Assembly: GCA_012514775.1 (NCBI GenBank)
Contig: JAAYZQ010000094.1
Span: 1 to 12,697, forward strand
Direction of reading: 5' to 3'
DNA length: 12,697 nt
From: Anaerolineaceae bacterium
GTDB taxonomy: Bacteria; Chloroflexota; Anaerolineae; JAAYZQ01
In this document: one piece after another, positions 1,054 through 12,697 of the stretch
Layout: each line of letters opens with the position of its first letter
How positions within the stretch are numbered: the first letter of the stretch is position 1
Made by a program: the position numbers and the translations under genes
Notes under the pieces: generated by a model
Told to the model about the DNA's origin: nothing
What the model saw: only the letters and a program-made list of their open reading frames with translations
Database searches by the model: none

Positions 1054-1078
1054 CGGGAGAAGGGAACCATTCTCGCTA

Positions 1079-1128
1079 GTAGTAACGACTTCAGTCGTTT
1101 TTGGACGGCTAAAGCCGTTACTACGAAC
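1079..1128. repeat. Inverted pair of REP hairpins (BIME-like)
   Basis: The plus-oriented REP (1079-1099) is GTAGT followed by a perfect 7-bp stem AACGACT/AGTCGTT with a TC loop. The minus-oriented REP (1104-1128) reads on its own strand as GTTCGTAGT, then AACGGCT, TT, AGCCGTC. The GTAG foot followed by a hairpin is the known REP hallmark, and two facing REPs are the BIME arrangement. The second copy matches the one at 6681-6705. Confidence 0.75.
1084..1102 (+). terminator. REP hairpin with T-run after the translocase gene
   Basis: The stem AACGACT/AGTCGTT (1084-1090/1093-1099) runs directly into a five-T tract (1098-1102), 31 bases after the translocase stop. It has the form of a short Rho-independent terminator built from the first REP of the pair. 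The stem is only moderately GC-rich, so termination may be partial. Confidence 0.5.
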
Positions 1129-1204
1129 CGTCGCCGATGACCTGTTAGGAGACAAGAAGAGAGTCATGGCCGCGCATTTGTGTCGCGGCGCTGGAGGGTG
1201 GAGC

Positions 1205-1633
1205 ATGGATCGGGAAGAGAGAGGGATGGACCTGGGCCTGGACGGCCTGGGATTGAAGCACATCGTGACGATCGTCGGGCTGGCCTTTGCCATCACCCTG
1301 GCGGTCATGATTGGCAAGCGCATGAGCGCCGACGCCCTGGCCATCGTCGTGGGCATTGCCTGCGGCCTCCTGGCGTCGCTGCCGCCCCTGGCACTGCTCT
1401 TGGTGGTGATTCTGCGGCGGGAGCGCAAAGAGGACAGGGCGCGGCAAGAGGACAACCGGGCCATGCCCCCCGTCATCGTCGTCCAGGGGGGAGCGCCCCA
1501 GGCCCTGCCGCCCGGTGCCCAGCCGGGCTACTGGCCCATGTCGGCACCGGGCATGCAGGGCGAGCGTAACTTCCAGGTCGTAGGCGGCGACGACCTCCTC
1601 GAAGGCGAGTGGACCGTCAGGCGAGATCGCTAG
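1205..1633 (+). CDS. Small membrane protein with two transmembrane helices, unknown function
   Basis: 142 aa, not recognised. The start at 1205 is chosen because GGAGGG lies 5-6 bases upstream; in-frame ATGs at 1166 and 1226 have poorer spacing. Two hydrophobic segments (about 19-37 and 44-70) are joined by a short loop, GKRMSADA. A strongly charged stretch (RRERKEDRARQEDNR, 71-85) follows, and by the positive-inside rule it is probably cytoplasmic. The tail (about 88-142) is rich in Pro and Gly with aromatics (PGAQPGYWP) and has an acidic patch (GGDDLLEGEW). No enzyme motif is visible. It follows the translocase gene on the same strand, but the inverted REPs with a terminator-like hairpin lie between, so co-transcription is doubtful. 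It converges on the hemerythrin gene with a 35-bp gap. Confidence 0.75.
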   Translation: MDREERGMDLGLDGLGLKHIVTIVGLAFAITLAVMIGKRMSADALAIVVGIACGLLASLPPLALLLVVILRRERKEDRARQEDNRAMPPVIVVQGGAPQALPPGAQPGYWPMSAPGMQGERNFQVVGGDDLLEGEWTVRRDR

Positions 1634-1645
1634 CCGCCAGCGTTA

Positions 1646-1664
1646 CAGGCACAGGTGTTGCCTG
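1646..1664. terminator. Possible bidirectional hairpin between convergent genes
   Basis: CAGGCA (1646-1651) and TGCCTG (1659-1664) form a perfect 6-bp stem with a 7-nt loop in the 35-bp gap between the two converging stop codons. There is no clear T-run on either side. The call rests mainly on position. Confidence 0.3.
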
Positions 1665-1668
1665 GCCC

Positions 1669-2115
1669 TTATCCGCTTTCTTTCTTCTCTTCGGCCTTCT
1701 GGTACTCCTGGAACAACTCGTCCAGTTTCTGCCGGGATGCCATGCCCTCCAACATGGGGAAGTGGGTCTTTTCCTCCTCGTCCATGTGGTGGCGGTTCAT
1801 CTCGTCCAGGACGTACCCCTTGGGGTTAAAGACCTCGGTTTCAAGGCTGAGGTCCATGAGCTCGCGGAGCACCAGCTTGGCGACGTGGTGCTCCTGGAGG
1901 GCCTTGAGGGCCTCCTCGCGCGCCTTGCCCCCCGCTTCCTGCATGTAGCGAAAGAGTGACGCCTCCTCGCCCACCACGTGGGGCATGACCGCGTCGTAGA
2001 ACTCCTGGCGCAGTTTTTCGCGCTGCTTGGGATCCTTTGCATTGCGGAGCTGCTCCCCGAGGCGGCGCTGCTTCTCGTGGTCCTCTACCAGGTGCTGGAT
2101 GAACTCGTGTGCCAT
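1669..2115 (-). CDS. Hemerythrin-like HHE domain protein
   Basis: 148 aa, a single four-helix HHE domain of usual length, predicted cytoplasmic. The start at 2115 is favoured because AGGAGG lies 8 bases upstream on the coding strand; a longer frame from 2148 lacks this. Candidate metal ligands follow the family spacing: H13 (EDHEK), H46-x3-E50 (PHVVGE), H76/H77 (EHH), and H109/H110 with E113/E114 (HHMDEEE). Proteins of this family bind a non-haem di-iron centre and serve in oxygen or nitric-oxide sensing, storage or iron-centre protection; which applies here cannot be told. The C-terminus is highly charged (EYQKAEEKKESG). It is a lone minus-strand gene with its own promoter at 2332-2359 and so is probably monocistronic. 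Confidence 0.9.
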   Translation of the reverse strand: MAHEFIQHLVEDHEKQRRLGEQLRNAKDPKQREKLRQEFYDAVMPHVVGEEASLFRYMQEAGGKAREEALKALQEHHVAKLVLRELMDLSLETEVFNPKGYVLDEMNRHHMDEEEKTHFPMLEGMASRQKLDELFQEYQKAEEKKESG

Positions 2116-2296
2116 CGTTTGTCCTCCTGTCGAAATGAGTTGTGCCAAACCAGGGTTCGCGGGTCACGACATGGCTCGTGCCGGCCCGCACAAGACAACG
2201 GCCAGGGTCGATGAGCGTATGGTGAACGAGGAGCAATGATGACTGCTGGGGATTTCCAGGCCCGCCGTGGCTGGGGGGGCTGCACTGCCCGGCGGC

Positions 2297-2322
2297 GATT
2301 CCGGCATTCGATTCCGGCATTC
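2297..2322. repeat. Perfect 13-bp tandem repeat at the hemerythrin transcription start
   Basis: GATTCCGGCATTC occurs twice with no gap (2297-2309 and 2310-2322). On the minus strand it lies just downstream of the -10 at 2332-2337, about +3 to +28 from the predicted start site. That is a common operator position, so a repressor site is plausible but unproven. Confidence 0.55.
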
Positions 2323-2331
2323 AATAGAACC

Positions 2332-2359
2332 ATTATACCACGGCCCCCGAAATTGGCAA
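2332..2359 (-). promoter_or_regulatory. Sigma70-like promoter for the hemerythrin gene
   Basis: On the minus strand TTGCCA (2354-2359) is followed by a 16-base spacer and a perfect TATAAT (2332-2337). It points to the hemerythrin gene and would give a leader of about 210 bases before the start at 2115. Confidence 0.7.
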
Positions 2360-2485
2360 GTCCGGGACACCGTGCGGAGTTTGGTCACCTGGGTAGGTCC
2401 TGACTGGCCGGTTGGCCGTTCCCCGCCGGCCGGCTTTGTGGTATGCTGGGAGCAGATTCGGAAGCCGTGGGGCCATCGCCGGCAG

Positions 2486-2553
2486 AGTGACGGGCCGGCG
2501 TCAGGTTGGCGCCAGAGTCGTGTCGAGCAGGCTGCGGGGAGTTGTGCTATGAT
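2486..2553 (+). promoter_or_regulatory. Promoter module upstream of the BNR/HEAT gene (copy 1 of 3)
   Basis: AGTGACGG begins at 2486. GTGTCGAGCAGG then lies 28 bases before an extended -10 TGCTATGAT (2545-2553). From GTGT to the -10 it aligns without gaps to the modules at 6569-6625 and 9537-9593, with about 16-18 of 28 spacer positions matching; it has about 11 extra bases between AGTGACGG and GTGT. No TTGACA-like -35 is present. It would give a leader of about 280 bases before 2839. Confidence 0.5.
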
Positions 2554-2560
2554 GATAATA

Positions 2561-2577
2561 CACACCAGGCGGGTGTG
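2561..2577 (+). promoter_or_regulatory. Palindrome just after the -10 of the BNR/HEAT promoter
   Basis: CACACC and GGTGTG pair perfectly around a 5-nt loop, beginning 8 bases after TATGAT and so at or near the predicted transcription start. It could be an operator half-site pair or a 5'-end RNA hairpin. Confidence 0.35.
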
Positions 2578-2838
2578 ACAGGCCACTGTAGTCCGCATGG
2601 AAATCTCACCGCTGTCGTACCCGACTGATCCTGGAGGTCAAGCCCGACGCGGGCACGGCGCACAGACGAGGGGGAAGCAACGTTAGAGAACCAGAAGAGA
2701 GCCGGAAGAACGGGAACCTTTTGCCCCCATAGTGCGTCAAAAGGGATGAGAGAGCAATTATTTACCCGGCGGTCCCGGCCGCCTACCCTGGCAGGAGTAA
2801 AGGGAAAGGAGCACCGGCCGCAGGATTGGGAGGTAGGG

Positions 2839-4770
2839 ATGAAGGAGAATCGGAAACGCAGAGCACTCCGCTGGCTGTTGAGCGTGGCCATCGTGGCGAT
2901 GGGCCTGACCGTAACCTGGGCCTGGGGCCAGGTCGCGCGCCTCGCCGAGCCCACCGAAGGCATCGCAGAACCGCAAATGACGCCCATGTATGCCGCCTGG
3001 CAGGCCCAGGGAGAGGGTGGGCCGGACGCGCTGCATCGCAGCCTGGACGGCGGCGCGAGCTGGGAGCCATTGGCGCTGCCCGGGGGCCTGGCAGCCGCGC
3101 TGTGGGCCGATGACGGGCGCGACGCCGTGGCCTTCGCCGGAGGGGATGGCTCGCTGTTGATATCCACCGACCAGGGGGAGAGCTGGCAGCAGGCCGAGAT
3201 AGGCGCCCCTGTTTCGAGCCTTACCTGGGACGAGGCCGGCACGCTGTACGCCGGCACCCAGGGGCAGGGCATTTACCGCGTGAGCCCCGACGGGAGCGTG
3301 GCGAACATGACCTATCCCGGAACGCCCCTGGCCGAGGCGCCCATCGTGGCCCTGGACGAGGCCAACGGGCGGCTGTTCGCTGCCACGCCCACCGTCCTGC
3401 ACTATGCCGACCTCATCGGCGTGGATGGGCCGGCCGAGTGGATCGAGACCTCCCCCGTGGAGGGCTGGATCACCACCCTGGCGGCCGCCGATCCTGACGT
3501 CGTCTATGCCGGCACCGCCACCCTGGGCGTGTTCATGACCTGGGATGCCGGGCAGGTGTGGGCGCCCGCCCGCGAGGGGCTGGGGCTGGCTGCCGGCCAG
3601 ATGGTAAACGTCACCGCCCTGAGCGTCGACCGCCAGGAGCCGGGCGTTCTGTACGCCACCGTGGACCACGCCGTGGGCAGCACCGAGGTGCACAGCAGCG
3701 CGGCGGGAGCCTACGTCAGCGTCGATAGCGGCGCCACCTGGCAGCCGCTGGCCGGGCCGGCATTCCCCGACGCCCGCCACGCCGCCGACCTGGTGACGGT
3801 TCCCGGGCAGCCGCTGGCCGTGCAGGCCGTGACGGACGAGGGCCTGCAGGCCTACGAGCCCGACGTGGCCGCCGCCCTGGCGTCGCTACAAAGTGACGAC
3901 GCGGCCACGCGCGCCCAGGCCGTTCGCTTGCTGGGCCTTGCCCGGGCAAGCGAGGCCGGCGACGAGCTGCTGGCGGCCGTGGCCGACCCCGACCCGGCGG
4001 TCAGCGTCATGGCCGGCGCGGCCCTGACGCGGCTGAACGATCCCGCCACGAGCAGCGGCCTGCTGGTTGCCCTGGAGCATCCCAACGAGCGGGTGCGCCT
4101 GGTGGCAGCCGAAACCCTGGGCCAGATGGGCGTCGAGGCGGCCGTCAAGCCGCTGCGCGCCATGCTCTTCCAGGGTTCCGGGACCGAGGCCACCATCGCC
4201 GGACAGGCCCTGGGCCGCATCAGCAGCCCGGATGCCATCGATGCCCTGACAGCGGCGCTGGAAGAGCCGGTGCCCACCAGCCGCTGGCACGCGGCCATGG
4301 CGGGGCTGGAGGCAGCGGGCGGGACAGCCGTCGGTCCGCTGGAAGATCTCCTCGACAACCGGGACGTGTACGTGCGGCGCAACGCCGCCGAAGCCCTGGG
4401 CTGGATCGGCGTGCCCGACGCGACACCCGCCCTGGTGGACGCGCTGCGCGACCGCGACGAGGTTGTGCGCAGCAAGGCGGCTTGGTCCCTGGGCATCATC
4501 GGCGACGCGGCCGCAGAGCGCGCCCTGCTGAGGGTCAGCGCCAACGACCCGTCGGAGGAGGTGCGGGCGCAGGCCGGCCGCGCCCTGGCCATGCTGGAAG
4601 CCGGTCCGACGCAGGCCAGCCGGAGCTGGTACGTGGACTGGGCGCCGCTGCTCAATCGCCTGGAGCCCGTGCGCTGGCTGCTCCTGGCCCTGTCGCTGGC
4701 CGCGGCCGCCTGGCTGATGGTCGGTGTCCGGCCGCGCGTGCCGGTGTTCATGCAGCAGAGAGAGCAGTAA
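2839..4770 (+). CDS. Membrane-anchored BNR propeller and HEAT-repeat protein
   Basis: 643 aa. The start at 2839 is chosen because GGGAGGT lies 5 bases upstream and the protein then opens as a signal sequence (MKENRKRRALRWLL, hydrophobic to about 27). An in-frame ATG at 2746 would bury the signal. Residues about 45-335 form a beta-propeller-like region with BNR/Asp-box motifs SLDGGASW (68-75), STDQGESW (109-116), TWDAGQVW (234-241) and SVDSGATW (294-301). Residues about 342-588 are HEAT/PBS-lyase-like repeats, for example NERVRLVAAETLGQMG, VYVRRNAAEALGWIG and EVVRSKAAWSLGIIG. A C-terminal helix (about 612-630) is followed by a 13-residue tail. Both repeat regions are thus predicted outside the cell, held at the C-terminal end. 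No sialidase catalytic residues are evident, so a binding or assembly role is more likely than an enzyme. A strong hairpin follows the stop. Confidence 0.85.
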   Translation: MKENRKRRALRWLLSVAIVAMGLTVTWAWGQVARLAEPTEGIAEPQMTPMYAAWQAQGEGGPDALHRSLDGGASWEPLALPGGLAAALWADDGRDAVAFAGGDGSLLISTDQGESWQQAEIGAPVSSLTWDEAGTLYAGTQGQGIYRVSPDGSVANMTYPGTPLAEAPIVALDEANGRLFAATPTVLHYADLIGVDGPAEWIETSPVEGWITTLAAADPDVVYAGTATLGVFMTWDAGQVWAPAREGLGLAAGQMVNVTALSVDRQEPGVLYATVDHAVGSTEVHSSAAGAYVSVDSGATWQPLAGPAFPDARHAADLVTVPGQPLAVQAVTDEGLQAYEPDVAAALASLQSDDAATRAQAVRLLGLARASEAGDELLAAVADPDPAVSVMAGAALTRLNDPATSSGLLVALEHPNERVRLVAAETLGQMGVEAAVKPLRAMLFQGSGTEATIAGQALGRISSPDAIDALTAALEEPVPTSRWHAAMAGLEAAGGTAVGPLEDLLDNRDVYVRRNAAEALGWIGVPDATPALVDALRDRDEVVRSKAAWSLGIIGDAAAERALLRVSANDPSEEVRAQAGRALAMLEAGPTQASRSWYVDWAPLLNRLEPVRWLLLALSLAAAAWLMVGVRPRVPVFMQQREQ

Positions 4771-4827
4771 GGCCGCGCCACGCTGCCACGCGGGCGCCGG
4801 CGTATTCTTGAATCCTGACTACGAACT

Positions 4828-4861
4828 CCAGGGGCCCATCTCGGGCCCCTGGACGTTTGTT
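4828..4861 (+). terminator. Strong hairpin, probable terminator after the BNR/HEAT gene
   Basis: CCAGGGGCCC (4828-4837) and GGGCCCCTGG (4843-4852) form a perfect 10-bp stem with a 5-nt loop, followed by the moderately T-rich ACGTTTGTT. It ends 36 bases before the next gene start. The T-tract is imperfect, so partial readthrough or an mRNA-stability role is possible. Confidence 0.6.
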
Positions 4862-4888
4862 CAAGACGAAAGGAAGGCAGCACAAACC

Positions 4889-6562
4889 ATGATCCTCTGG
4901 AAACACATCGGCTGGAAAGGACTGTTGGGCGCCGCCCTGCTGGTCGCCATGGCCGGGCTGCTGGCCGCGTGCGCTCCCTTCCCCGGGACGGCAACGCCCG
5001 GCGCCACAGGGCCCGATGGGAACGGCGGGCAGGAGTCGACGGATCTCGCCGGCACGGCCTGGATCTTGAGCTCGCTGCGCGGCCAGCCGCCCCTGGAGGG
5101 CACGCAGATCACCCTGGAATTCCAGGAGGAACATCTGGGCGGGCTGGCCGGCTGCAACTCGTACGGCACCGCATCGGACAGCGGTGACTACCAGGCCCAG
5201 GACGGTGAGCTGCGGATCCCGACGTTGACCAGCACCCTCATGGCCTGCGAGGGGCCCGCCGGCGTGATGGACCAGGAGGCCGCCTACCTGGATACCCTGC
5301 CTCAGGCCACCGCCTACCGCCTGGAAGGCGACGTCCTGGAGCTGCAGGACGCCTCCGGCGAAACGATCCTGACGTTCCGGCGGCAGGGAACGGCCGGCGG
5401 CAGCACGGAGGGGAACGGCGGGCAGGAGTCGACGGACCTCGCCGGCACGGCCTGGATCTTGACCTCGCTGCGCGGCCAGCCGCCTATCGCGGACACCCAC
5501 CTGGCCCTGGAGTTCACAGAGAATGGCGCTGCCGGCTTTGCGGGCTGCAACTCGTTCGGCAGCGCTCGCGACGCTCAAGTCGAAAGCGAGTACGTGGTGA
5601 GCGGGGGCGAGCTGGTGCTCCCGCCCCTGGCCCAGACCCTCATCCTCTGCAGCGAGCCCGAAGGCGTCATGGACCAGGAAAATGCCTACATGGAGGCCCT
5701 GCGCCAGGCGACCGCCTACCGGCTGGAGGGCGACGTCCTCGAGCTGCAGGACGAGGCCGGCGAGACGATCCTGACCTTTCAGCGCCAGGAAGAGCTGAGC
5801 ATGGACCCCGGGGCGCTGCCGGGCACGGCCTGGCGGCTGGTGAGCCTCGACGGGCAGTCCCCGGTTGATGGCTCGACCCTCACCCTGGCCTTCCACGACG
5901 AGCACCGGGCCGGCGGCCACGCCGGCTGCCGGGATTACGTCCTGGGCTACCGGGCCGGCGAGGACGGCCTCAACTTTTACTACACGGCCATGATGGGCCA
6001 CGTTTGTATCGCGCCCGGTACGCAGGAGGACCAGGACCGCCTGCTGCGGCAGGAGGGGACCTTTACCGATGCCCTGAGCTGGACGGACCGCTTCCGCCTG
6101 GCCGAGGATGGCTCGTCGCTGGAACTGCTCTCGCAGCGCGGCGAGAGCCTGGTCTTTGAGCCGCTGGCGGCCGGCGAGGTGCCGCCCGTGGAGGGCACCA
6201 CGTGGGCGCTCGTCTCCTTCGTGGAGCCCAACGACCAGGCGGGGCTGGAGCAGCCGCTGCCGGCGCCGCTGGACACCGTTGCCGGGACGGACGTAACGCT
6301 GGCGTTCCGGGACGGAACCGCCGCGGGCACGGCCGGCTGCAACCAGTACACGGCGCCCTACAGCCTGGAAGGCGCGTCGCTGAGCATCGAGGACCCGGTC
6401 TCGACCAAGATGTTTTGCGAGCCCGAGGGGGTCATGGAGCAGGAGCAGCGCCTGCTGAGCTGGCTGGCCGAAGCCGAGACCGCCCAGGTCCACGGCCGGC
6501 AGCTCTGGCTGGAGACGGCCGATGGCCGGGCGCTGGTCTTTACCGCAGGGTTGGAGGGATAA
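4889..6562 (+). CDS. Lipoprotein with four META (HslJ-like) domains
   Basis: 557 aa. The start at 4889 gives a clear lipoprotein signal with the lipobox GLLAAC (Cys28); AGGAAGG lies about 10 bases upstream. Four META/HslJ-like (DUF306) domains follow at about 53-166, 183-300, 310-425 and 434-554. Each opens with a G-T-x-W motif (AGTAWIL, AGTAWIL, PGTAWRL, EGTTWAL) and carries an AGC motif plus a second Cys 26-34 residues on (C89/C120, C220/C254, C347/C373, C484/C510). Domains 1 and 2 are recent duplicates; domain 3 has lost the Asn of AGCN (AGCRDY). Single META domains occur in E. coli HslJ, linked to novobiocin resistance, and in secreted proteins of unclear function. Four in tandem suggests a surface binding or structural role. 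No promoter module was found directly upstream. Confidence 0.9.
   Translation: MILWKHIGWKGLLGAALLVAMAGLLAACAPFPGTATPGATGPDGNGGQESTDLAGTAWILSSLRGQPPLEGTQITLEFQEEHLGGLAGCNSYGTASDSGDYQAQDGELRIPTLTSTLMACEGPAGVMDQEAAYLDTLPQATAYRLEGDVLELQDASGETILTFRRQGTAGGSTEGNGGQESTDLAGTAWILTSLRGQPPIADTHLALEFTENGAAGFAGCNSFGSARDAQVESEYVVSGGELVLPPLAQTLILCSEPEGVMDQENAYMEALRQATAYRLEGDVLELQDEAGETILTFQRQEELSMDPGALPGTAWRLVSLDGQSPVDGSTLTLAFHDEHRAGGHAGCRDYVLGYRAGEDGLNFYYTAMMGHVCIAPGTQEDQDRLLRQEGTFTDALSWTDRFRLAEDGSSLELLSQRGESLVFEPLAAGEVPPVEGTTWALVSFVEPNDQAGLEQPLPAPLDTVAGTDVTLAFRDGTAAGTAGCNQYTAPYSLEGASLSIEDPVSTKMFCEPEGVMEQEQRLLSWLAEAETAQVHGRQLWLETADGRALVFTAGLEG
5018..5790 (+). repeat. Recent internal duplication encoding META domains 1 and 2
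   Basis: Bases 5018-5091 and 5411-5484 match at all but two positions (offset 393). The domain ends, around 5309-5380 and 5711-5780, match closely at offset 402. The middles differ much more, so the copies are recent or kept alike at their edges by gene conversion. Confidence 0.8.
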
Positions 6563-6568
6563 ACCTCA

Positions 6569-6625
6569 AGTGACGGCCAAGCGCCGGGCGAGTGTGGGGC
6601 AAGGCCTCGGGAGACGGACTATAAT
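6569..6625 (+). promoter_or_regulatory. Promoter module upstream of the 681-aa lipoprotein gene (copy 2 of 3)
   Basis: AGTGACGGCC begins 7 bases after the META stop. GTGTGGGGCAAG lies 28 bases before TATAAT (6620-6625). It aligns without gaps to 9537-9598 with about 49 of 62 positions identical. The -35 area is GGGCAA/GGCAAG rather than TTGACA. It implies a leader of about 220 bases containing a REP and two hairpins. Confidence 0.65.
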
Positions 6626-6680
6626 GCCCCTCGGACCAGCCGCCTGTCCACCATGATTTGATGGGTGGTTACGCTAAGAA

Positions 6681-6705
6681 AACGGCTGAAGCCGTTACTA
6701 CGAAC
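6681..6705 (-). repeat. Solo REP hairpin, same family as 1104-1128
   Basis: On the minus strand: GTTCGTAGT, then the perfect 7-bp stem AACGGCT/AGCCGTT with a TC loop. The plus-strand stretch 6682-6705 differs from 1105-1128 at one base only. I found no partner REP beside it. Confidence 0.75.
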
Positions 6706-6734
6706 TTGTCAGTTCAGTCTTGAGACCGTAACAT

Positions 6735-6777
6735 GGGGAGCAGGCAGCTCGCCCTGAGGGGTTTGCCTGCTTGCCCC
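6735..6777 (+). promoter_or_regulatory. Large hairpin in the leader of the 681-aa lipoprotein gene
   Basis: AGCAGGCA (6739-6746) pairs perfectly with TGCCTGCT (6764-6771), extended by GGGG (6735-6738) with CCCC (6774-6777) across a two-base bulge. The 17-base loop holds a small CCC/GGG pairing. Function unknown. Confidence 0.4.
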
Positions 6778-6797
6778 TCCACGGCCCAACCTGAGAA

Positions 6798-6827
6798 GGG
6801 CAGGCACGATGCCTGCCCGGCTACAAC
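6798..6827 (-). repeat. GTAG-footed hairpin of a second REP-like type
   Basis: GGGCAGGC (6798-6805) pairs perfectly with GCCTGCCC (6811-6818) around a 5-nt loop. On the minus strand it reads GTTGTAGCC and then the stem, so it has a REP-type foot. It ends 30 bases before the ATG at 6849. Confidence 0.5.
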
Positions 6828-6848
6828 GAGGAAGCAAAGGAGGAAACC

Positions 6849-8894
6849 ATGATCCGTAGTACGCACCTGTTCCTGATGATCATCCTGGCGCTGCTGCTGG
6901 CGGGGTGCGGCGCCGCGGCGCCCAATGCCACCACGCCGCCCGATGCCACCGAACCGCCGAGCCCCCTGCCCACGCCGGAGCCCGAGCCCCAATCGCCGCC
7001 GCTGACGGAGGGCTTTGAGGGCAGCCTGGCGGGCTGGCACGTGGGCGCCGACGTGCCCCAGGACCCGAACCGGCCCGGCCAGGAGGTGGCCTGGTCGGTT
7101 GAACTGAGCGACGAGCAGGCTTCCGACGGGAACAGCTCGCTGCGCCTGCGCATCGACGGCAGCCAGGATGACGGAACCATCTGGCTGGCCCGCCCCCTGG
7201 CGGTGCTGCCCGGCGAGCCGCGAACGGTGCGCCTGTCCTTCGACCTGTGGAGCCCGTCCGAGAGTTTTAACACGCTGGCCAACGTGGCGACCTATGCCGG
7301 CGGGCAGGCGCCCGCCGCCGAGGCCGATTTTGACCTTTCCCAGCAGGCCGACCAGGCCGAGGGCTGGCAGCGCTACAGCTACAGCCTTTCGGCCGCGCCC
7401 GGCCCCGGCGGCGAGCTGTGGGTGGCCGTGGGCATCAGCGCCGTTTGGGAGACGGAGGTGACCTACTACATCGACGAGCTGGTGGTCGAGGTGGAAGGCG
7501 AGGCCGGCGCCGGTCCCGGCACCGCGCCGCTCCAGCCCGGCACCGGCGAGGACGGACGCCCGCCGGTCGCCACCCTGCGGGTGGGCGAACAGGAGCAGGT
7601 GGCCGGCATCGGCAGCTACTGCTGGACGGACCCGGGCGCGGGCGTGGGCGTGTGTGCCGACGCCATCGGCCTCATTACCCCGGCGGAGCCTCTGGAGGTG
7701 TCGTCGCCCTTCGCGGCGACGCTTGACCTGGGCCTGGAGCAGCCGCCCTCGCGGGTGGTGCTGCGCGCCATCCCCGTCACTGCCGCCGACGCGATAGACT
7801 CGGGCGGCGCCGGTCCCGAAGGGCGGGCGTGGCGGCCCACGGGCGGGCGACAACTGCCCCTCGACCCGGCGCGCACGTCGTCCCTCGAGATCAGCCTCGA
7901 TCCCGGGCTCTATGTCCTTGACCTGCAAGCATCGTGGGCCAACTCTAACAGCGCGAGCTATGGCTTCCTGGTGCAGGTGACCGCCCCCGGCGTCGGGCAG
8001 GCCGGACCGGGAGCCCTTATCGTGGAGGAGGCGCCCATCGTCGCCGATGCCGAGGACAGACCGACGCACCTGGAGTACATGCAGCGCATCGGCAGCGACG
8101 TCCTGGACAAGCGCGGGGCGTGGCGCGAGCCCGACCCCCAGGCGCTGGTGGCGGAATACAACGAGGTCCTGGCGCCCTTTGGCTACCGCCTGGAGGCCGA
8201 GTTCAACGCCGAGTGGAACCGAACCTTTTACGACCTGTACCACGGCGACGAGGCCGAGCCCCTGTTGCTCGATCTAAGCCGGGTCTGGCGGCCCTCGGTC
8301 AGCGCCTCGGGTGACGATTTCGTCATGGCCGCCGAGAACGCGCCCAACGTGCAGCCCATGCACCTGCTCATCAGCGCCCAGGGGCCCATGCCCTGGCAGG
8401 CCATGGACAGCAACATGCTGCCCCCCGCCTACCTGGGCGACGAGCAGGCGGCCATGGTGGCCACACAGGGCCAGGGCATCGACATGGAGTACAGCGTCTG
8501 GGTGGGCGGCCGCGAGGTCTATAGCGGGACGGCGCCTATGATGGTCAGCCATCCGGTGAACGGCTTTGTGGTGTGGGACAACCACTGGGCCCTGGAGCTG
8601 GAGGACCAGGTCATCGTCGACGGCGAGGACCTGGGGCCGAAACTGGGCCACGACAAGGTCTTTGGCTTCCAGTTGCTGGGCGGCAAGCCTTTCTACTTTT
8701 ACGAGGCCGACGGCGTGATCCACCTATCGTATGACGGCGAGACCCTGCCACAGACGTACGACGAGGTGCCTCACAACCAATGCTGCGAGCCAGCCATGTT
8801 CAACCCGCGGAGCAACGAGGACATGGTGGCGTTCCACGGCCTGCGGGCCGGGACGTGGTATTATGTCGAGGCAGGAGCGTACGGCGACGAGTAG
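6849..8894 (+). CDS. 681-aa surface lipoprotein, unknown function
   Basis: The start at 6849 is well supported: AAAGGAGG lies 5 bases upstream and a lipoprotein signal follows, with lipobox LLAGC (Cys20). A Pro/Thr/Glu linker (about 21-52) leads to a beta-rich jelly-roll-like region (about 54-217) opening with EGFEGSLAGWHVG and ending in YYIDELVVEVEGE; this resembles carbohydrate-binding or LamG-like folds by pattern only. Residues about 238-380 form another beta domain with a Cys pair (GSYCW C258, GVCAD C269) and a late LDPGLYVLDLQASW motif. The C-terminal part (about 390-681) begins helical and then has repeated beta-strand motifs (VWVGGREVYSG, GFQLLGGKPFYFYEADG) and ends near HNQCCEPAMFN and AGTWYYVEAG. 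It is not a family I can name. No catalytic motif seen; binding to a polymer or partner outside the cell is a guess. Confidence 0.85.
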   Translation: MIRSTHLFLMIILALLLAGCGAAAPNATTPPDATEPPSPLPTPEPEPQSPPLTEGFEGSLAGWHVGADVPQDPNRPGQEVAWSVELSDEQASDGNSSLRLRIDGSQDDGTIWLARPLAVLPGEPRTVRLSFDLWSPSESFNTLANVATYAGGQAPAAEADFDLSQQADQAEGWQRYSYSLSAAPGPGGELWVAVGISAVWETEVTYYIDELVVEVEGEAGAGPGTAPLQPGTGEDGRPPVATLRVGEQEQVAGIGSYCWTDPGAGVGVCADAIGLITPAEPLEVSSPFAATLDLGLEQPPSRVVLRAIPVTAADAIDSGGAGPEGRAWRPTGGRQLPLDPARTSSLEISLDPGLYVLDLQASWANSNSASYGFLVQVTAPGVGQAGPGALIVEEAPIVADAEDRPTHLEYMQRIGSDVLDKRGAWREPDPQALVAEYNEVLAPFGYRLEAEFNAEWNRTFYDLYHGDEAEPLLLDLSRVWRPSVSASGDDFVMAAENAPNVQPMHLLISAQGPMPWQAMDSNMLPPAYLGDEQAAMVATQGQGIDMEYSVWVGGREVYSGTAPMMVSHPVNGFVVWDNHWALELEDQVIVDGEDLGPKLGHDKVFGFQLLGGKPFYFYEADGVIHLSYDGETLPQTYDEVPHNQCCEPAMFNPRSNEDMVAFHGLRAGTWYYVEAGAYGDE

Positions 8895-8901
8895 CACCGC
8901 A

Positions 8902-8926
8902 GGGCAACCGCGAGGGTTGCCCGTAC
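8902..8926 (-). repeat. 8-bp hairpin between the two exported-protein genes
   Basis: GGGCAACC (8902-8909) pairs perfectly with GGTTGCCC (8915-8922) around a 5-nt loop. On the minus strand the stem follows GTAC, resembling the design of the element at 6798-6827 but with an altered foot. It ends 31 bases before the start at 8954, with no T-run, so it looks like a REP-type or mRNA-processing hairpin rather than a terminator. Confidence 0.5.
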
Positions 8927-8953
8927 AGGTGGGGGAGAAAAGGGGGGACGCGC

Positions 8954-9514
8954 ATGAGACGGAAGCTCTGGCTGTTGGTGCTCGTTGCCGGCGCCCTGTT
9001 GCTGGCCCCCGGGCGGGCGCGGGCCTGTTTGTGCGCCGCGGTCGCATCGCCGGGAGAGGAGATGGCCAGGTCGGCGGCGGTCCTGGCGGGGCGCGTGCTG
9101 CGCATCGACGCCCCGCAGGGTGCGATGGTCAGCACGGGGGACCCGGTGCACGTCGTCTTCCAGGTGGAGCGGGTGTGGAAGGGGCCAGCCGTTCACAACC
9201 TGGTCATCGTCACCGCCCGCCACAGCGTGAGCTGCGGCTTTCCCTTCGAGGTCGGTGAGGAGTACCTGGTCTATGCCCGGGCCGTGGAGGGCGAGCTCCA
9301 TACCAGCATCTGCAGCCGGACGGCGCCCCTGTCCGCCGTCGCCGAGGACCTGGTCGCCCTGGGGCCGGGGATGGCCATGGCCCCCGCCGAGCCCGAGCCG
9401 CCGGCGGGTCGTTGGCGGGGGGTCCTGCCCCTGCTGCTGGTTGCTGCCGCTGTCGTTACCGCAGCCGTCCTGATCGTAAGGGCGGCCAGGCAGGCGCGCC
9501 AGGGAGGGCACTGA
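8954..9514 (+). CDS. Membrane-anchored TIMP/netrin-like protein
   Basis: 186 aa. The start at 8954 has AGGGGGG 6 bases upstream and gives a signal peptide (MRRKLWLLVLVAGALLLAPG) with an A-x-A site (A22-R23-A24) directly before Cys25. The mature protein would begin CLCAAVA. The body matches the TIMP/NTR pattern: VLAGRVLRID, VVFQVERVWKG, SCGFPFEVGEEYLVYA, TSICSRTAPLSAVAEDLVALG. Its four Cys (25, 27, 94, 120) suit two disulfides as in NTR domains. A Pro/Glu linker (about 143-152), a transmembrane helix (about 157-176) and a basic tail follow, so the domain sits outside the cell, C-terminally anchored. In animal TIMPs an N-terminal C-x-C blocks a metalloprotease zinc; whether this bacterial relative inhibits a protease is unknown. 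It is probably co-transcribed with the lipoprotein gene 59 bases upstream. Confidence 0.85.
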   Translation: MRRKLWLLVLVAGALLLAPGRARACLCAAVASPGEEMARSAAVLAGRVLRIDAPQGAMVSTGDPVHVVFQVERVWKGPAVHNLVIVTARHSVSCGFPFEVGEEYLVYARAVEGELHTSICSRTAPLSAVAEDLVALGPGMAMAPAEPEPPAGRWRGVLPLLLVAAAVVTAAVLIVRAARQARQGGH

Positions 9515-9536
9515 TCATAGCGCCACGCCGGGCGGC

Positions 9537-9593
9537 AGTGACGGCCAGGCGCCGGCCGGGCGTGGGGCAAGCCGCCGGGCAATGCGCTATAAT
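9537..9593 (+). promoter_or_regulatory. Promoter module upstream of the 584-aa lipoprotein gene (copy 3 of 3)
   Basis: AGTGACGGCC begins 22 bases after the preceding stop. GCGTGGGGCAAG lies 28 bases before TATAAT (9588-9593). It is about 79% identical to 6569-6630. The -10 sits inside an upstream in-frame extension from 9582, which argues that translation starts at 9663. Confidence 0.65.
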
Positions 9594-9594
9594 A

Positions 9595-9647
9595 CCCCCA
9601 GGGATAAGGGAGCGGGCACGCGCCCGCCCTGGGGGTTCGCCCCCTGG
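9595..9647 (+). promoter_or_regulatory. Nested and alternative hairpins at the start of the leader
   Basis: CCCCCAGGG (9595-9603) is the exact inverse of CCCTGGGGG (9627-9635), enclosing GCGGGC/GCCCGC (9612-9617/9622-9627). The right arm can instead pair as GGGGG-TTCG-CCCCC (9631-9644), ending shortly before the ribosome site. Transcription should begin near 9600, so the outer stem would be mostly absent from the RNA and may act as a DNA palindrome. Confidence 0.4.
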
Positions 9648-9662
9648 AAAGAGGGGACGAGG

Positions 9663-11417
9663 ATGACGAGGAAAGGCCGGATTTCGCCAGCCATCTTTCA
9701 ACAGCGCTCGGGACACGTCCCGTGGCTGGCGCTCTTGATCGTGACGCTGCTGGCAACGGGCTGTGGAGCGATGCTCACCGCCGATGGGGGCACACCGCCC
9801 GCCGCCCCCACAGCCCTGCCCACCGAGACGCCACCCGCCACGTTGCCGCCCACCGAGACGCCGGCGGCAACGGCCACGCCACCCGCGACGGCCACGTCGC
9901 CCGCGGCCCGGCCCACCGGGGCCGCTCCCGCCGCGGGCCCGCTGGATGACGTTCGCGAGGCGCTGGCCGCCTACGAGCCGGTGGCCGATGCCCGGCCGGC
10001 CGCCTACGCCGTGCTGGAGGGCGTCGCCGCCTGGCTGGCGGACGGAGGCGATGCCGAAGCGCTGTCCGAGGCGATCGGCCCGGTGCCGGTGCCCGGCGGC
10101 GCCGAGCCGGCCATGGCCCTCGTTTGGGCCACCGACCTGACGGGCGATGACAGGCCCGACACCGTGCTGTACATCCCGGTCATGGGCCTGCCCCTCTTCG
10201 TCTTTACCCCCCAGGGCGGGGACCCGCGCCCCGCCGGCCACATCCTGCCGCCGGACATCGACGCCATCCAGACCGAGTTCCCCGTGGTGGGGACCGAGAT
10301 GGACGTGGATTTGCCGGGGGTCGACGTCCGGGATCTGACGGGCGACGGCCTGCCCGAGGTGCTGTTCAGCACCATAGGCGCCGGTGGCAGCAGCTACCGG
10401 GTGCTGCCGCGATTCTACCGCTGGCACGAGGGCAGCTTTCACCTCATCTTTTCCGCGACGCTGGTCAATTGGGCCGGGGAATCGCGCCTTGCCCTGGAGC
10501 CGGAACCGGCGGGCGAGGGCCGCAGCCAGATCGTCCTGACCTACCCGCAGCTCTACGGCCAGGGGTTCGACCACAAGATGGTCAACCATCCCATCGGGCG
10601 CCAGGTGTGGCGCTGGAGCCCGGGCGCGGGGCACTACGTGGCCGCCGAGCAGAGCGTCGATCTGGAGGCCGGCGGCTGGGGGCCCGAGCTGCCGCCCACC
10701 GTGGAGGACCGGCTGCGCTGGCTGACCAACGAGGCCGAGGTCCTGTTCCGCAGCGGCGAGTACGGGCAGGCGGTGACGGGCTATGACGCCGTGCTGCGCC
10801 TGGCGGACGAGGAGGACTGGCAGCCGGGCGAGGGCGAGGGCAACTGGCCAGCCCTGGCCGCCTTCCGCCGGGCCGAGGCCCTGCTGCTGAGCGGTGACGC
10901 CGGGGAGGGCCGGGAGGAGATGGCGGCCGTGGCCGAGGCGTACGCCGGCGACCTGCTGGGCGAGCTGGCCGCCGCCTTCCTGGAAGGCTACGGCCAGGCC
11001 AGCGGGCCCGAAGCCGCCGCCCGGGGCGTGGCGGCCATGCAGGACGTACCCCTGTGGGACCACTTCTATTACGAAGAGCCGGGGGCGCTGCGCTTTCCCA
11101 TGGACGCCGCGGGCATCCTCTATCCCGGCGCCGGGCTGGCGGCCTACCTGCAAGCCCATCCCGAGCTGGCGGCCGACCCCTCGGCGCTGCAAGCCGGGCT
11201 GACCGAAGCCGGCTACGCGGTGATGTACGTCATCCCGGCCGAAGCCGGAGCCGTGGAGATCCTGCTGGCGGCCCGGGGGCCGTCGGATCCGGTCCTGCAG
11301 AGCGGGAGCGAGCCGCCGCCCATTTCGTGGCGGCTGGCTCCGCCCAGCGAGGCGTGGCACGTGTCCCCGCCCGCGGGCGAGGGCGGGGACGGCTGGCCGA
11401 CGGTGGGCAGCTTCTAA
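9663..11417 (+). CDS. Lipoprotein with FG-GAP-like Asp loops and TPR-like helical region
   Basis: 584 aa. The start at 9663 has AGAGGGG about 6-7 bases upstream; a frame opening at 9582 would place the promoter -10 inside the gene. A lipoprotein signal ends LLATGC (Cys34). A Thr/Pro/Ala linker spans about 42-92. Residues about 93-335 carry two Asp-rich loops, DLTGDDRPD (158-166) and DLTGDGLPE (224-232), typical of FG-GAP/VCBS calcium-binding propeller blades; two are too few for a full propeller. Residues about 345-450 are helical with TPR-like spacing (AEVLFRSGEYGQAVTGYDAVL, then FRRAEALLLSGDAGEG). The rest (about 455-584) has no motif I recognise. Predicted anchored outside the membrane, perhaps calcium-dependent and protein-binding. 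It is last in the exported-protein block; the only downstream hairpins are the REP array. Confidence 0.85.
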   Translation: MTRKGRISPAIFQQRSGHVPWLALLIVTLLATGCGAMLTADGGTPPAAPTALPTETPPATLPPTETPAATATPPATATSPAARPTGAAPAAGPLDDVREALAAYEPVADARPAAYAVLEGVAAWLADGGDAEALSEAIGPVPVPGGAEPAMALVWATDLTGDDRPDTVLYIPVMGLPLFVFTPQGGDPRPAGHILPPDIDAIQTEFPVVGTEMDVDLPGVDVRDLTGDGLPEVLFSTIGAGGSSYRVLPRFYRWHEGSFHLIFSATLVNWAGESRLALEPEPAGEGRSQIVLTYPQLYGQGFDHKMVNHPIGRQVWRWSPGAGHYVAAEQSVDLEAGGWGPELPPTVEDRLRWLTNEAEVLFRSGEYGQAVTGYDAVLRLADEEDWQPGEGEGNWPALAAFRRAEALLLSGDAGEGREEMAAVAEAYAGDLLGELAAAFLEGYGQASGPEAAARGVAAMQDVPLWDHFYYEEPGALRFPMDAAGILYPGAGLAAYLQAHPELAADPSALQAGLTEAGYAVMYVIPAEAGAVEILLAARGPSDPVLQSGSEPPPISWRLAPPSEAWHVSPPAGEGGDGWPTVGSF

Positions 11418-11427
11418 CTGCGACCAC

Positions 11428-11787
11428 AAGCCGTTCGTAGTGCGCGATTCATCGCGCTGTGAACGCCTGGGCGCGCCCAAGCCCGCACTACGAACGCCGC
11501 CCCGGCAACCCGCTCGCCCAAGCCGTTCGTAGTGCGCGATTCATCGCGCTCTAAACGCCTCGGCGCGCCCAAGCCCGCACAACGAACGCCGCCCCGGCCA
11601 CCCACTCGCCCAAGCCGTTTGTAGTGCGCGATTCATCGCGCTGTGAACGCCTCGGCGCGCCCAAGCCCGCACAACGAACGCCGCCCCGGCAACCCGCTCG
11701 CCCAAGCCGTTCGTAGTGCGCGATTCATCGCGCTGTGAACGCCTCGGCGCGCCCAAGCCCGCACGACGAACGCCGCCCCGGCCACGC
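11428..11787. repeat. Tandem REP array, four 92-bp units, 3' side of the RAYT gene
   Basis: Units begin at 11428, 11520, 11612 and 11704; the last is clipped at the RAYT stop codon. Each has a plus REP, GTTCGTAGT then GCGCGAT-TC-ATCGCGC (first copy 11433-11457), and a facing minus REP whose stem reads GCGGGCT, TG, GGCGCGC on its strand (first copy 11471-11495). The second stem carries a G-G mismatch, a usual REP feature. The plus hairpin is identical in all four; the foot reads GTTTGTAGT in unit 3. The minus foot is intact only in unit 1. Confidence 0.85.
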
Positions 11788-11788
11788 C

Positions 11789-12385
11789 CTAGAAATCATC
11801 CCACCCCCGTCCAAAGTCGCGGACAGGATAACGAGTCCATAGATCCCGCAGCCACTCGCGGCCTTCCTGCTCCAGGTACCAATGCACGCTGCTCTCTGCC
11901 CAGTCATAGGGTGACTCTGCCCAACGATGTTTCACCGGATTATAATGCACATAGTTCAGGGTCGTGTAGTAGTGGGCAGGCGAGCGAATCGCTCGGTCTG
12001 CGAATCGATACCAGACCTTGCGACTAGGGCTCTTGTCCTCCAGGTTCCACTCTCGCGCCAGGGGACCGTGTACAAGGCGGAAGGTAGTTCCCAAGGCTCT
12101 GAAATCGGTGATCCGCGCCAGGAGATGGTAGTGGTTGGGCAAAATTATCCAGGCACGGATCTCGACTCCCTCTGTAATAAACTTCTCAAACAGGTCATCG
12201 AGAAGCCTTTGCCTGCGTTCCGGGCTGGAGATGTGGCACTGGTGCTCGAAACAGGTGCACGTCAAGAGATAATACTCTTGATCTTGATACGGGTGCGGCG
12301 GAGAATGAGGCGGATAACCGTGGGCCAGGCGCTCCTCGACGAGCTTGGTACGTTCCGCAGGGCTTAAGTTCCGATATTCGTACAA
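11789..12385 (-). CDS. REP-associated tyrosine transposase (RAYT, Y1/HUH family)
   Basis: 198 aa, full length for the family. The start is TTG at 12385, supported by AAAGGAG 7 bases upstream. RAYTs are HUH single-strand endonucleases that recognise GTAG-footed REP hairpins and probably move them. Seen here: YYLLTCTCFEHQCHI (38-52), the HUH motif PNHYHLL (83-89), WYRFADRAIR (125-134), and HYYTTLNYVHYNPVKHRW (138-155) with SPYDWAESSVHWY after it. The catalytic Tyr should be in the 139-148 helix, but I cannot say which. The coding sequence is visibly less GC-rich than its neighbours, suggesting transfer. No terminal inverted repeats of a classic insertion sequence are seen; instead REP arrays abut both sides, as for domesticated RAYTs. 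The frame is intact. Confidence 0.93.
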   Translation of the reverse strand: MYEYRNLSPAERTKLVEERLAHGYPPHSPPHPYQDQEYYLLTCTCFEHQCHISSPERRQRLLDDLFEKFITEGVEIRAWIILPNHYHLLARITDFRALGTTFRLVHGPLAREWNLEDKSPSRKVWYRFADRAIRSPAHYYTTLNYVHYNPVKHRWAESPYDWAESSVHWYLEQEGREWLRDLWTRYPVRDFGRGWDDF

Positions 12386-12392
12386 GGTCTAG

Positions 12393-12399
12393 CTCCTTT
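12393..12399 (-). promoter_or_regulatory. Ribosome binding site fixing the TTG start of the RAYT gene
   Basis: The minus strand reads AAAGGAG, 7 bases before the TTG at 12385-12383. There is no nearby in-frame ATG, and the N-terminus from TTG (MYEYRNLSPAERTKLVEERL) looks like that of related RAYT proteins. Confidence 0.7.
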
Positions 12400-12410
12400 C
12401 GTTGAGCCAG

Positions 12411-12697
12411 AGGCGTGCTAAAGCCCGCACTACGAACGTCGCACTACCAACGGCGCACTGACCCGTCCGCTCCGTTAAGCCGTTCGTAGTGCGCGATTCA
12501 TCGCGCTCAGAAGGCCCTTGCGTGCTAAAGCCCGCACTACCAACGTCGCACTACCAACGGCGCACTGCCCACCCGCTCGGATAAGCCGTTCGTAGTGTGC
12601 GATTCATCGCGCTCAGAAGGCCACGGCGTGCTAAAGCCCGCACTACCAACGTCGCACTACCAACGGCGCACTGCCCACCCGCTCGCTTAAGCCGTTC
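12411..12697. repeat. Tandem REP array, 106-bp units, 5' side of the RAYT gene, runs off the window
   Basis: A partial unit (12411-12476), two full units from 12477 and 12583, and the first 9 bases of another from 12689. The plus REP is the same as in the 92-bp array (12482-12506). In the second unit its stem has one change to a G-T wobble that keeps pairing. The facing REP is GCGGGCTTTAGCACGC on its strand, a stem with one G-A mismatch. Each unit also carries extra CACTACCAACG copies absent from the 92-bp units. Confidence 0.85.

What the first reader, a model, noticed from the sequence alone, without database searches (positions are those of the whole stretch)
1079..12697. One REP foot, several stems: GTTCGTAGT joined to different but self-complementary hairpins
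Dispersed REPs (1104-1128, 6681-6705) and array REPs (11433 onward) share the foot GTTCGTAGT and a two-base loop, TC or TT. Their stems are unrelated in sequence: AACGGCT/AGCCGTT against GCGCGAT/ATCGCGC. A further stem, AACGACT/AGTCGTT, sits on a GTAGT foot at 1079. Whole stems have been exchanged while pairing and the foot are kept, which suggests the foot is the recognition element and the stem a swappable or lineage-specific part. GTAG foot plus hairpin is known for REPs; that one RAYT serves several stem classes is inference.
Basis: partly seen in the sequence, partly recalled or inferred. Interest (0 to 1): 0.7.

Follow-up and report, generated by a model that had tools for sequence, protein, structure and literature searches.

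The report
One transposase, several REP hairpin stems
Short DNA hairpins around a bacterial jumping-gene enzyme keep the same base and the same tip while the stem between them changes in matched pairs, so one enzyme can probably handle several versions; the general kind is already known, but this branch shows it unusually clearly.

Summary
Confirmed with corrections. The window holds a RAYT gene (11789-12385, minus strand) between two REP arrays, and dispersed REPs at two places, on the foot GTTYGTAGT (once GCTAGTAGT). The stems at 1079 and 1104 are not unrelated: they differ by one compensated pair. The window's genome is not held, so I tested relatives. Of 81 RAYT loci (window included), 59 are flanked by such REPs; 41 of these carry more than one stem. 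In one RAYT cluster, mostly Nostoc and kin, each flank keeps its own stem; elsewhere this is not seen. In 12 genomes 254 of 355 dispersed copies pair fully, against 89 after within-genome arm shuffling. Of 49 other RAYT-like loci read, none carries GTTY-footed REPs of this type. The RAYT shows the published marks of TnpA-Y1 subclass 2.8. Best explanation: the enzyme reads foot and tip on a folded hairpin, and the stem drifts under pairing. Flank and dispersed stems can disagree, as in this window; the published 'orthoswitch' also explains that. Known kind; nothing was tested biochemically.

The parts
11789..12385 (-). RAYT / TnpA-REP gene, 198 aa, intact frame, NHYH and YVHYNP motifs
   Evidence: NCBIfam NF047646 80.9 bits, cut-off 80; profile of its family finds PDB 4er8 TnpArep E 1.7e-12; N84, H85, Y86, H87 and Y145 invariant in 27 sequences
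1075..1099 (+). dispersed REP, foot GCTAGTAGT, stem AACGACT tc AGTCGTT
   Evidence: 7 of 7 pairs; head-to-head with the next part
1104..1128 (-). dispersed REP, foot GTTCGTAGT, stem AACGGCT tt AGCCGTC
   Evidence: 6 of 7 pairs, outermost broken
6681..6705 (-). dispersed REP, foot GTTCGTAGT, stem AACGGCT tc AGCCGTT
   Evidence: 7 of 7 pairs
4802..4826 (-). GTTCGTAGT foot without a hairpin, perhaps a decayed REP
   Evidence: 1 of 7 pairs plus two G-T
11433..11457 (+). array REP, stem GCGCGAT tc ATCGCGC; copies also at 11525-11549, 11617-11641 (foot GTTTGTAGT) and 11709-11733
   Evidence: 7 of 7 pairs in all four; 92-bp units
11471..11495 (-). inverted partner, GCGGGCT tg GGCGCGC; copies at 11563-11587, 11655-11679, 11747-11771 with foot GTTCGTTGT or GTTCGTCGT
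   Evidence: pair 4 mismatched in all four
12482..12506 (+). array REP GCGCGAT on the other side of the RAYT; second copy 12588-12612 (GTGCGAT)
   Evidence: 7 of 7 pairs; second copy one G-T pair
12413..12437 (-). inverted partner, GCGGGCT tt AGCACGC; copies 12520-12544 and 12626-12650 with foot GTTGGTAGT
   Evidence: pair 4 mismatched in all three; about 106-bp units

Best explanation
This is a REPtron: a RAYT gene inside arrays of its own REP hairpins. Shown by comparison: foot GTTYGTAGT and apex T-TY-A are conserved, the six base pairs between vary with pairing kept, and single RAYT loci carry up to four stems at once. Inferred: the RAYT, an HUH single-strand nuclease, reads the foot (also as guide to its cleavage site) and the apex on a folded REP, and needs the stem mainly to be paired. 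Stems therefore drift by compensated pair changes, and one RAYT maintains several stems, most plainly the two different stems of many inverted pairs. In this window the dispersed AACGRCT stems and the RAYT-side GCGCGAT stems would then be stem variants of one REP family; whether this RAYT moved the dispersed ones is inference.
For: Agnostic scan (GTAG plus hairpin only) of 81 loci: 374 hits against 1-13 for nine permuted tags; apex TTTA or TTCA in 245 of 264. Dispersed copies in 12 genomes: 254 of 355 fully paired; arm shuffles 17.1 overall, 89.0 within genome, maximum 107. 59 of 81 RAYT loci flanked, 41 with more than one stem. In the 22 loci whose RAYT is within 0.30 of L026's, same-slot stem distance is 0.51 against 0.96 with slots shuffled, 0 of 1000 as low. 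Inverted pairs tend to carry different stems: 6 of 78 identical against 16.3 expected, 3 of 2000 shuffles as low. 0 of 49 other RAYT-like loci carry a GTTY-footed REP of this type. In G006 the pair AAGCGCT/AGGCGAT recurs at one spacing 7 times although its RAYT is flanked by AAGCGCT only. Published: the Marinomonas TnpA-REP needs loop T12, T13 and A15, and swapping its whole stem for the complement affects cleavage only moderately; the E. coli enzyme is active on y, z1 and z2 (PMC8266576).
Against: Stems follow RAYT ancestry (Mantel r 0.60; 0.38 without the 19 Nostoc-group loci), which stem-specific recognition would also give. Slot-specific stems are not seen outside that group: 37 other loci, pairs under 0.35 apart, 1.97 against 1.98 shuffled. 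In G027 18 of 18 paired dispersed copies are in the flank set, and in G024 87 of the 100 listed (of 1,140) carry the flank stem in their 5' arm. In G006 copies of the non-flank class are more mispaired (12 of 27 against 5 of 23), as past switching would predict. Published stems are not wholly free: position 4 in Marinomonas and the central and upper stem in Stenotrophomonas have some effect. 10 of 63 genomes have no more foot-apex matches than the reversed control. Most genomes are many-contig assemblies of unstated completeness; 27 of the 57 matches came without a locus and were not read. Binding or cleavage was never tested.
Confidence: 0.68

Rival explanations
1. Orthoswitch: each RAYT reads one stem class at a time. 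The flanking REPs mutate to a new class, the new class spreads, and the old class remains scattered and decays (Nunvar 2013). The window's AACGRCT copies would be relics of an earlier state.
For: Proposed for Pseudomonas and Stenotrophomonas (PMC3686654). Flank and dispersed classes disagree completely in G001 (0 of 25) and G003 (0 of 8), as in the window, and in G041 (0 of 9, flanks from L036). In G006 and G004 the non-flank class is more mispaired (12 of 27 against 5 of 23; 7 of 25 against 1 of 11). Stem divergence tracks RAYT divergence.
Against: Over the nine genomes with a flank set non-flank copies are not more decayed: 101 of 122 perfect against 85 of 112 for flank classes (Fisher p 0.20, 12 ambiguous copies dropped); in G001 25 of 26 are intact. 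It does not explain several stems kept in fixed slots at one RAYT in the Nostoc group, nor inverted pairs whose two ends differ.
Confidence: 0.35
2. Each stem class has its own RAYT, lost, unassembled or too distant to be found.
For: RAYT loss is reported elsewhere (PMC3686654; PMC3733652). The host genome is not held. Most genomes searched have other RAYT-like genes.
Against: 49 other RAYT-like loci (45 distinct places) carry no GTTY-footed REP of this type; several have their own quite different hairpins. Two or more stems flank the same RAYT in 41 of 59 loci.
Confidence: 0.15
3. The stem difference within an inverted pair is selected against long perfect palindromes (SbcCD cleavage, replication stalling) and has nothing to do with RAYT recognition.
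For: Different stems in 72 of 78 pairs, more than random re-pairing gives. Suggested by Di Nocera 2013 for heterodimers in general (PMC3733652).
Against: It does not explain why stems differ between lineages. Some partners differ at one pair only, leaving much of the long palindrome. It is compatible with the best explanation rather than opposed to it.
Confidence: 0.4

Closest known systems
TnpA-Y1 subclass 2.8 REPtrons (Quentin 2018, PMC6006769)
   Same: About 199 aa, NHYH, W[YH], YIHYNP (YVHYNP in the window), proline-rich N-terminus, flanked by GTAG REPs; some members carry a REP inside the gene, as 12 of 81 loci do here.
   Different: Eight proteins, all cyanobacterial, in that sample (relatives in other phyla noted there); here also Chloroflexota and other phyla by record title. 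In the sections I read the REPs are called long canonical, without consensus or stem statistics.
Group 3 REPtron Mb of Marinomonas sp. MWYL1 (Corneloup 2021, PMC8266576)
   Same: GTAG plus a perfect hairpin with apex T-T-N-A; complementing the stem affects cleavage only moderately; pairing needed.
   Different: 5-bp stem set two bases from GTAG; whether the RAYT is of the same group was not tested; measured by cleavage and SELEX, here by comparison only.
[not shown]
   Same: One RAYT with several REP types in inverted pairs; TnpA-REP active on all three.
   Different: Bulged stems and variable loops; here perfect stems and a fixed apex.
REP orthogroups and orthoswitch in Pseudomonas and Stenotrophomonas (Nunvar 2013, PMC3686654)
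   Same: Orthologous RAYTs flanked by different REP classes; REP classes present without a cognate RAYT.
   Different: There mostly one class per RAYT (a few with two slightly different REPs), with decay after the switch; here several at once, and non-flank classes not clearly more decayed.
GTAG-tagged REP families (Di Nocera 2013, PMC3733652)
   Same: GTAG tag, diverse stems, TY loops, complementary stem changes, heterodimers, cyanobacterial members.
   Different: In the sections read no link is made between slot, stem and RAYT divergence; figure consensus sequences are not held, so overlap with its cyanobacterial families (GTAG-12, -15, -16) could not be checked.

Membership tests
RAYT / TnpA-REP (NCBIfam NF047646) | profile score over the curated cut-off | tested here: met
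   80.9 bits against 80, just over
RAYT / TnpA-REP (NCBIfam NF047646) | HUH pair and single catalytic tyrosine | tested here: met
   NHYH at 84-87 and Y145 invariant in 27 sequences; aligned with PDB 4er8. That Y145 is the catalytic residue rests on the alignment and on published motifs
RAYT / TnpA-REP (NCBIfam NF047646) | gene flanked by GTAG hairpins that also occur elsewhere in the genome | tested here: met
   arrays on both sides, same-foot REPs at two other places in the window but with another stem; genome-wide in relatives
RAYT / TnpA-REP (NCBIfam NF047646) | cleaves single-stranded REP at CT or CA | not testable with these tools
   needs a biochemical assay
TnpA-Y1 subclass 2.8 | NHYH, W[YH], YIHYNP, proline-rich N-terminus, about 199 aa | tested here: met
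   74 of 81 loci have all four marks as coded (Y[IVL]HxNP and an early PPH accepted); the window reads YVHYNP, 198 aa
TnpA-Y1 subclass 2.8 | clusters with the published members in a tree | not tested
   published sequence set not fetched
REPIN / BIME | two REPs in inverted orientation at short, regular spacing | tested here: met
   1075-1128 and the arrays; 78 such pairs in 12 genomes
Group 3 RAYT (Bertels / Corneloup) | belongs to group 3 by sequence | not tested
   only the loop signature is shared; Quentin 2018 says subclasses 2.7 and 2.8 were not identified by the Bertels survey
IS200/IS605 insertion sequence | transposase gene itself present in several copies | tested here: inconclusive
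   own genome not held; in relatives one close copy in 40 of the 47 genomes, two rows in seven (in G023 and G051 the two rows are halves of one gene)

The most novel reading that the evidence does not exclude
In this RAYT clade foot and apex form the recognition code, and the stem is an end-identity label: different stems mark the different flanks of the RAYT and the two ends of each mobile pair, and are kept apart by selection over some twenty percent of RAYT divergence, so that one enzyme can pair unlike ends and avoid joining like ones. The slot evidence for this comes from one group only.
Probability: 0.13. Interest if true: 0.65.

Novelty: new member of a known kind. Interest (0 to 1): 0.42.

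Why it matters
It shows which parts of a REP a RAYT clade holds constant (foot and apex) and which drift (stem), with many natural variants, and gives Chloroflexota and cyanobacterial REPs a searchable consensus. If one RAYT really handles several stems, REP classes should not be counted as evidence for as many transposases, and REP abundance without a cognate RAYT need not mean RAYT loss. The natural stem variants are a ready-made test set for substrate specificity of HUH nucleases.

Tried and rejected
Whole-stem exchange: rejected for close RAYTs, where stems differ stepwise, though nearly all of that evidence is one group (215 of 232 comparisons). The stem network (39 of 40 stems joined by single-pair steps) is no strong argument, since random stems of the same composition give a mean largest component of 33.7. 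First counts of flank stems mixed in REPs that lie inside the RAYT gene; recounted without them, which I quote. The 19 'Nostocales' loci were picked by me from record titles with recalled taxonomy and are not all Nostocales of the set; one search repeats the slot test on a group defined by RAYT distance (22 loci) and on the rest, where it fails. The decay test used hand-typed flank sets that were smaller than those for G010, G013 and G043; one search repeats it with the sets, and I quote that. The generic hairpin scan missed six-pair stems whose outer pair is broken; one search repeats the test strictly. A search for the window's own stem in 396 genomes of G001's class found it in only 3 genomes, 7 copies; the lists for G014, G070 and G365 were not used in the counts. 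Genomes whose lists were cut or not printed (G002, G005, G011, G012) were left out; G010 is 55 of 57. The pattern used for fixes the apex, so it cannot test it; one search does. A paper search for the bare 9-mer gave 154 papers; none of the 20 listed looked related. The palindrome at 6797-6827 gave no match in 195 loci or in viral contigs.
Full report
What is in the window. I found one transposase gene, a RAYT at 11789-12385 on the minus strand, 198 aa, NCBIfam NF047646 at 80.9 bits over a cut-off of 80 (no Pfam match). A profile of 27 relatives finds the E. coli TnpArep structure 4er8 at E 1.7e-12. On one side lie four 92-bp units, on the other units of about 106 bp that run off the contig. 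Each full unit holds a plus-strand REP with stem GCGCGAT and a minus-strand partner with a different, imperfect stem (GCGGGCT, pair 4 always mismatched). Dispersed REPs lie head-to-head at 1075-1128 and singly at 6681-6705. Eleven GTTYGTAGT feet against 0.04 in dinucleotide shuffles, and eight foot-hairpins against 0.03, settle that this is not chance.

The stems at 1079 and 1104 differ by one compensated pair. The loop and the pair next to it are conserved too. The minus-strand array partners were overlooked.

Relatives. The host genome is not held, so I used 80 loci with relatives of this RAYT, by record title in Chloroflexota, Cyanobacteria and a few other phyla (106 were found, the best 80 kept). 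A scan of these and the window asking only for GTAG, one base and six perfect inner pairs around a two-base loop gives 374 hits in 61 of 81 loci, against 1 to 13 hits for nine permuted tags. Collapsed to 264 unique per locus, they mostly read GTT[CT]GTAGT and end in TTTA or TTCA in 245 cases; pair 7 is T-A in 263; 36 six-pair stems occur. Foot and apex are fixed and the stem between them varies.

Pairing is kept while sequence changes. In 12 genomes 428 copies were listed; 355 lie more than 5 kb from the RAYT or on another contig, and 254 of these pair at all six inner positions. Dealing out the 3' arms anew gives 17.1 over all genomes and 89.0 within genomes, at most 107. The foot-apex pattern occurs up to 1,770 times per genome, against 0 to 12 for the reversed pattern; in 10 of 63 genomes it does not exceed that control.

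One RAYT, several stems. Of 81 loci, 59 have paired REPs within 1.5 kb outside the gene; 41 of these have more than one inner stem (24 two, 15 three, 2 four), 18 have one. In 19 loci of Nostoc and its kin (my selection, taxonomy recalled) the stem depends on the slot: upstream same-strand AGCACT in 36 of 37 REPs, upstream opposite AGGACT in 24 of 24, downstream same-strand AGGGCT in 17 of 28; these RAYTs differ by a median of 21%. With the group defined by RAYT distance (22 loci within 0.30 of L026) same-slot stem distance is 0.51 against 0.96 with slots shuffled within loci, 0 of 1000 as low. In the 37 other loci, pairs under 0.35 apart, it is 1.97 against 1.98, so slot-specific stems are shown for that one group only. 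Inverted pairs prefer unlike partners: 6 of 78 alike against 16.3 expected; away from the RAYT locus 5 of 59 against 12.1 (10 of 2000 as low); on inner positions 2-6 alone 13 of 78 against 22.8 and 12 of 59 against 17.7 (37 of 2000). Copies in arrays are not independent, so these figures are guides.

Stepwise, not exchanged. Flank-stem distance follows RAYT distance (Mantel r 0.60, 0 of 2000; 0.38 without the 19 loci, 0 of 2000). For RAYTs less than 20% apart, 232 same-slot comparisons give 0, 1 and 2 differences in 180, 47 and 5 cases; 215 of them lie within the 19 loci, the other 17 give 13, 2 and 2. Of 70 copies with one mispair in the 12 genome lists 48 are A-C or G-T, the intermediates of transitions.

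Has each stem its own RAYT? I read the surroundings of 49 other RAYT-like loci (45 distinct places; many are weak matches). None has a GTTY-footed hairpin of this type; one (L188) has a lone chance-like hit with another foot. Of 13 loci of this clade read in the same way 11 do; the other two, L150 and L173, keep the foot but have stems of another length or offset. Several other RAYTs have their own hairpins of quite different form. 27 of the 57 matches had no locus and were not read. One other RAYT (L167, G039) shares the foot GTTCGTAG but has an 8-bp stem and a 9-base loop (read by eye).

Flank against dispersed stems. Of fully paired dispersed copies those in the flank set are: G027 18 of 18, G010 28 of 41, G006 18 of 33, G007 4 of 10, G004 10 of 28, G013 5 of 15, G043 2 of 8, G001 0 of 25, G003 0 of 8. 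Three genomes gave no flank set by this pattern; with flanks read from the loci G039 has 4 of 11 and G041 0 of 9, and in G026 the flank stem is one pair shorter. G024 is dominated by its flank stem (87 of 100 listed rows of 1,140). The window resembles G001: GC-rich stems at the RAYT, AACGACT-like stems elsewhere. The published orthoswitch model predicts that non-flank classes decay; over the nine genomes with a flank set they are not more mispaired (101 of 122 perfect against 85 of 112, p 0.20), though in G006 and G004 they are. Classes were defined from perfect copies and 12 ambiguous copies were dropped, which weakens this test.

Mechanism. Established for other RAYTs (PMC8266576, results parts 2-3 and first part of the discussion read): TnpA-REP cleaves folded single-stranded REP at CT (and CA for Marinomonas); changing GTAG moves the Marinomonas cleavage site as a guide would; GTAG is indispensable for the E. 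coli enzyme but not for binding in Stenotrophomonas; the Marinomonas enzyme needs loop T12, T13 and A15, is moderately affected by complementing its stem and badly by a mismatch; the E. coli enzyme accepts y, z1 and z2. The apex conserved here, T-T-Y-A, is that same loop signature. I therefore infer reading of foot and apex with the stem as paired spacer. Not shown: binding, cleavage, or that the window's RAYT moved the dispersed copies.

Known or new. The RAYT carries the marks published for subclass 2.8 (length, NHYH, W[YH], YIHYNP, proline-rich N-terminus, REP inside the gene in some; PMC6006769, named sections and passages). Diverse stems on GTAG, heterodimers and more than one REP subfamily in nearly half of REPtrons are in print (PMC3733652, sections read; PMC6006769), and so is disagreement between flank and dispersed classes (PMC3686654, two sections). 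Searches for RAYT and REPIN with cyanobacteria and for REP with Chloroflexi returned, of papers on this subject, these and the REPIN paper PMC3116915, of which I saw the listing only (a wider search, listed 13 papers). I saw no report of the extended foot-apex consensus or of slot-specific stems in what I read; figures and supplements were not available, so this is not a claim of absence from print.

Noticed in passing
L025, L026, L027, L040, L041, L042, L044, L046, L048, L057, L060, L068: A REP lies inside the RAYT reading frame in 12 of 81 loci; such insertions are noted in print for subclass 2.8.
   Followed up: partly
window 11433-11771: In the 92-bp array the plus-strand REPs stay perfect in all four units while the minus-strand partners share a mismatch at pair 4 and three have lost the GTAG foot; decay is one-sided.
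   Followed up: no
window 12413-12664: In the 106-bp units the minus-strand foot is doubled: GTTGGTAGTGCGAC directly before a second GTT[CG]GTAGT.
   Followed up: no
window 6797-6827: GTTGTAGCC followed by a 9-bp palindrome (GGGCAGGCA tcg TGCCTGCCC, minus strand), perhaps a terminator or another REP type; no match in 195 loci or viral contigs.
   Followed up: partly
L167 1447, 2369, 2665 (minus): A RAYT of another branch in G039 has the foot GTTCGTAG before GTTGGGCT, nine bases, AGCCCAAC: same foot, different hairpin type.
   Followed up: partly
L150 / L014 (G026): RAYT flanks have stems one pair shorter (GCGCT tc AGCGC after GTTCGTAGTT) while dispersed copies have the usual length; stem length varies too.
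   Followed up: partly
L155 (G365): Another RAYT-like gene sits beside a long array of GTAG/GTGG hairpins (CGCAASTY stems) with a 52-bp period.
   Followed up: no
window 4724-6562 and 2746-4770: A protein with META domains (four matched stretches) and a protein with HEAT repeats and BNR-like matches lie between the dispersed REPs.
   Followed up: no
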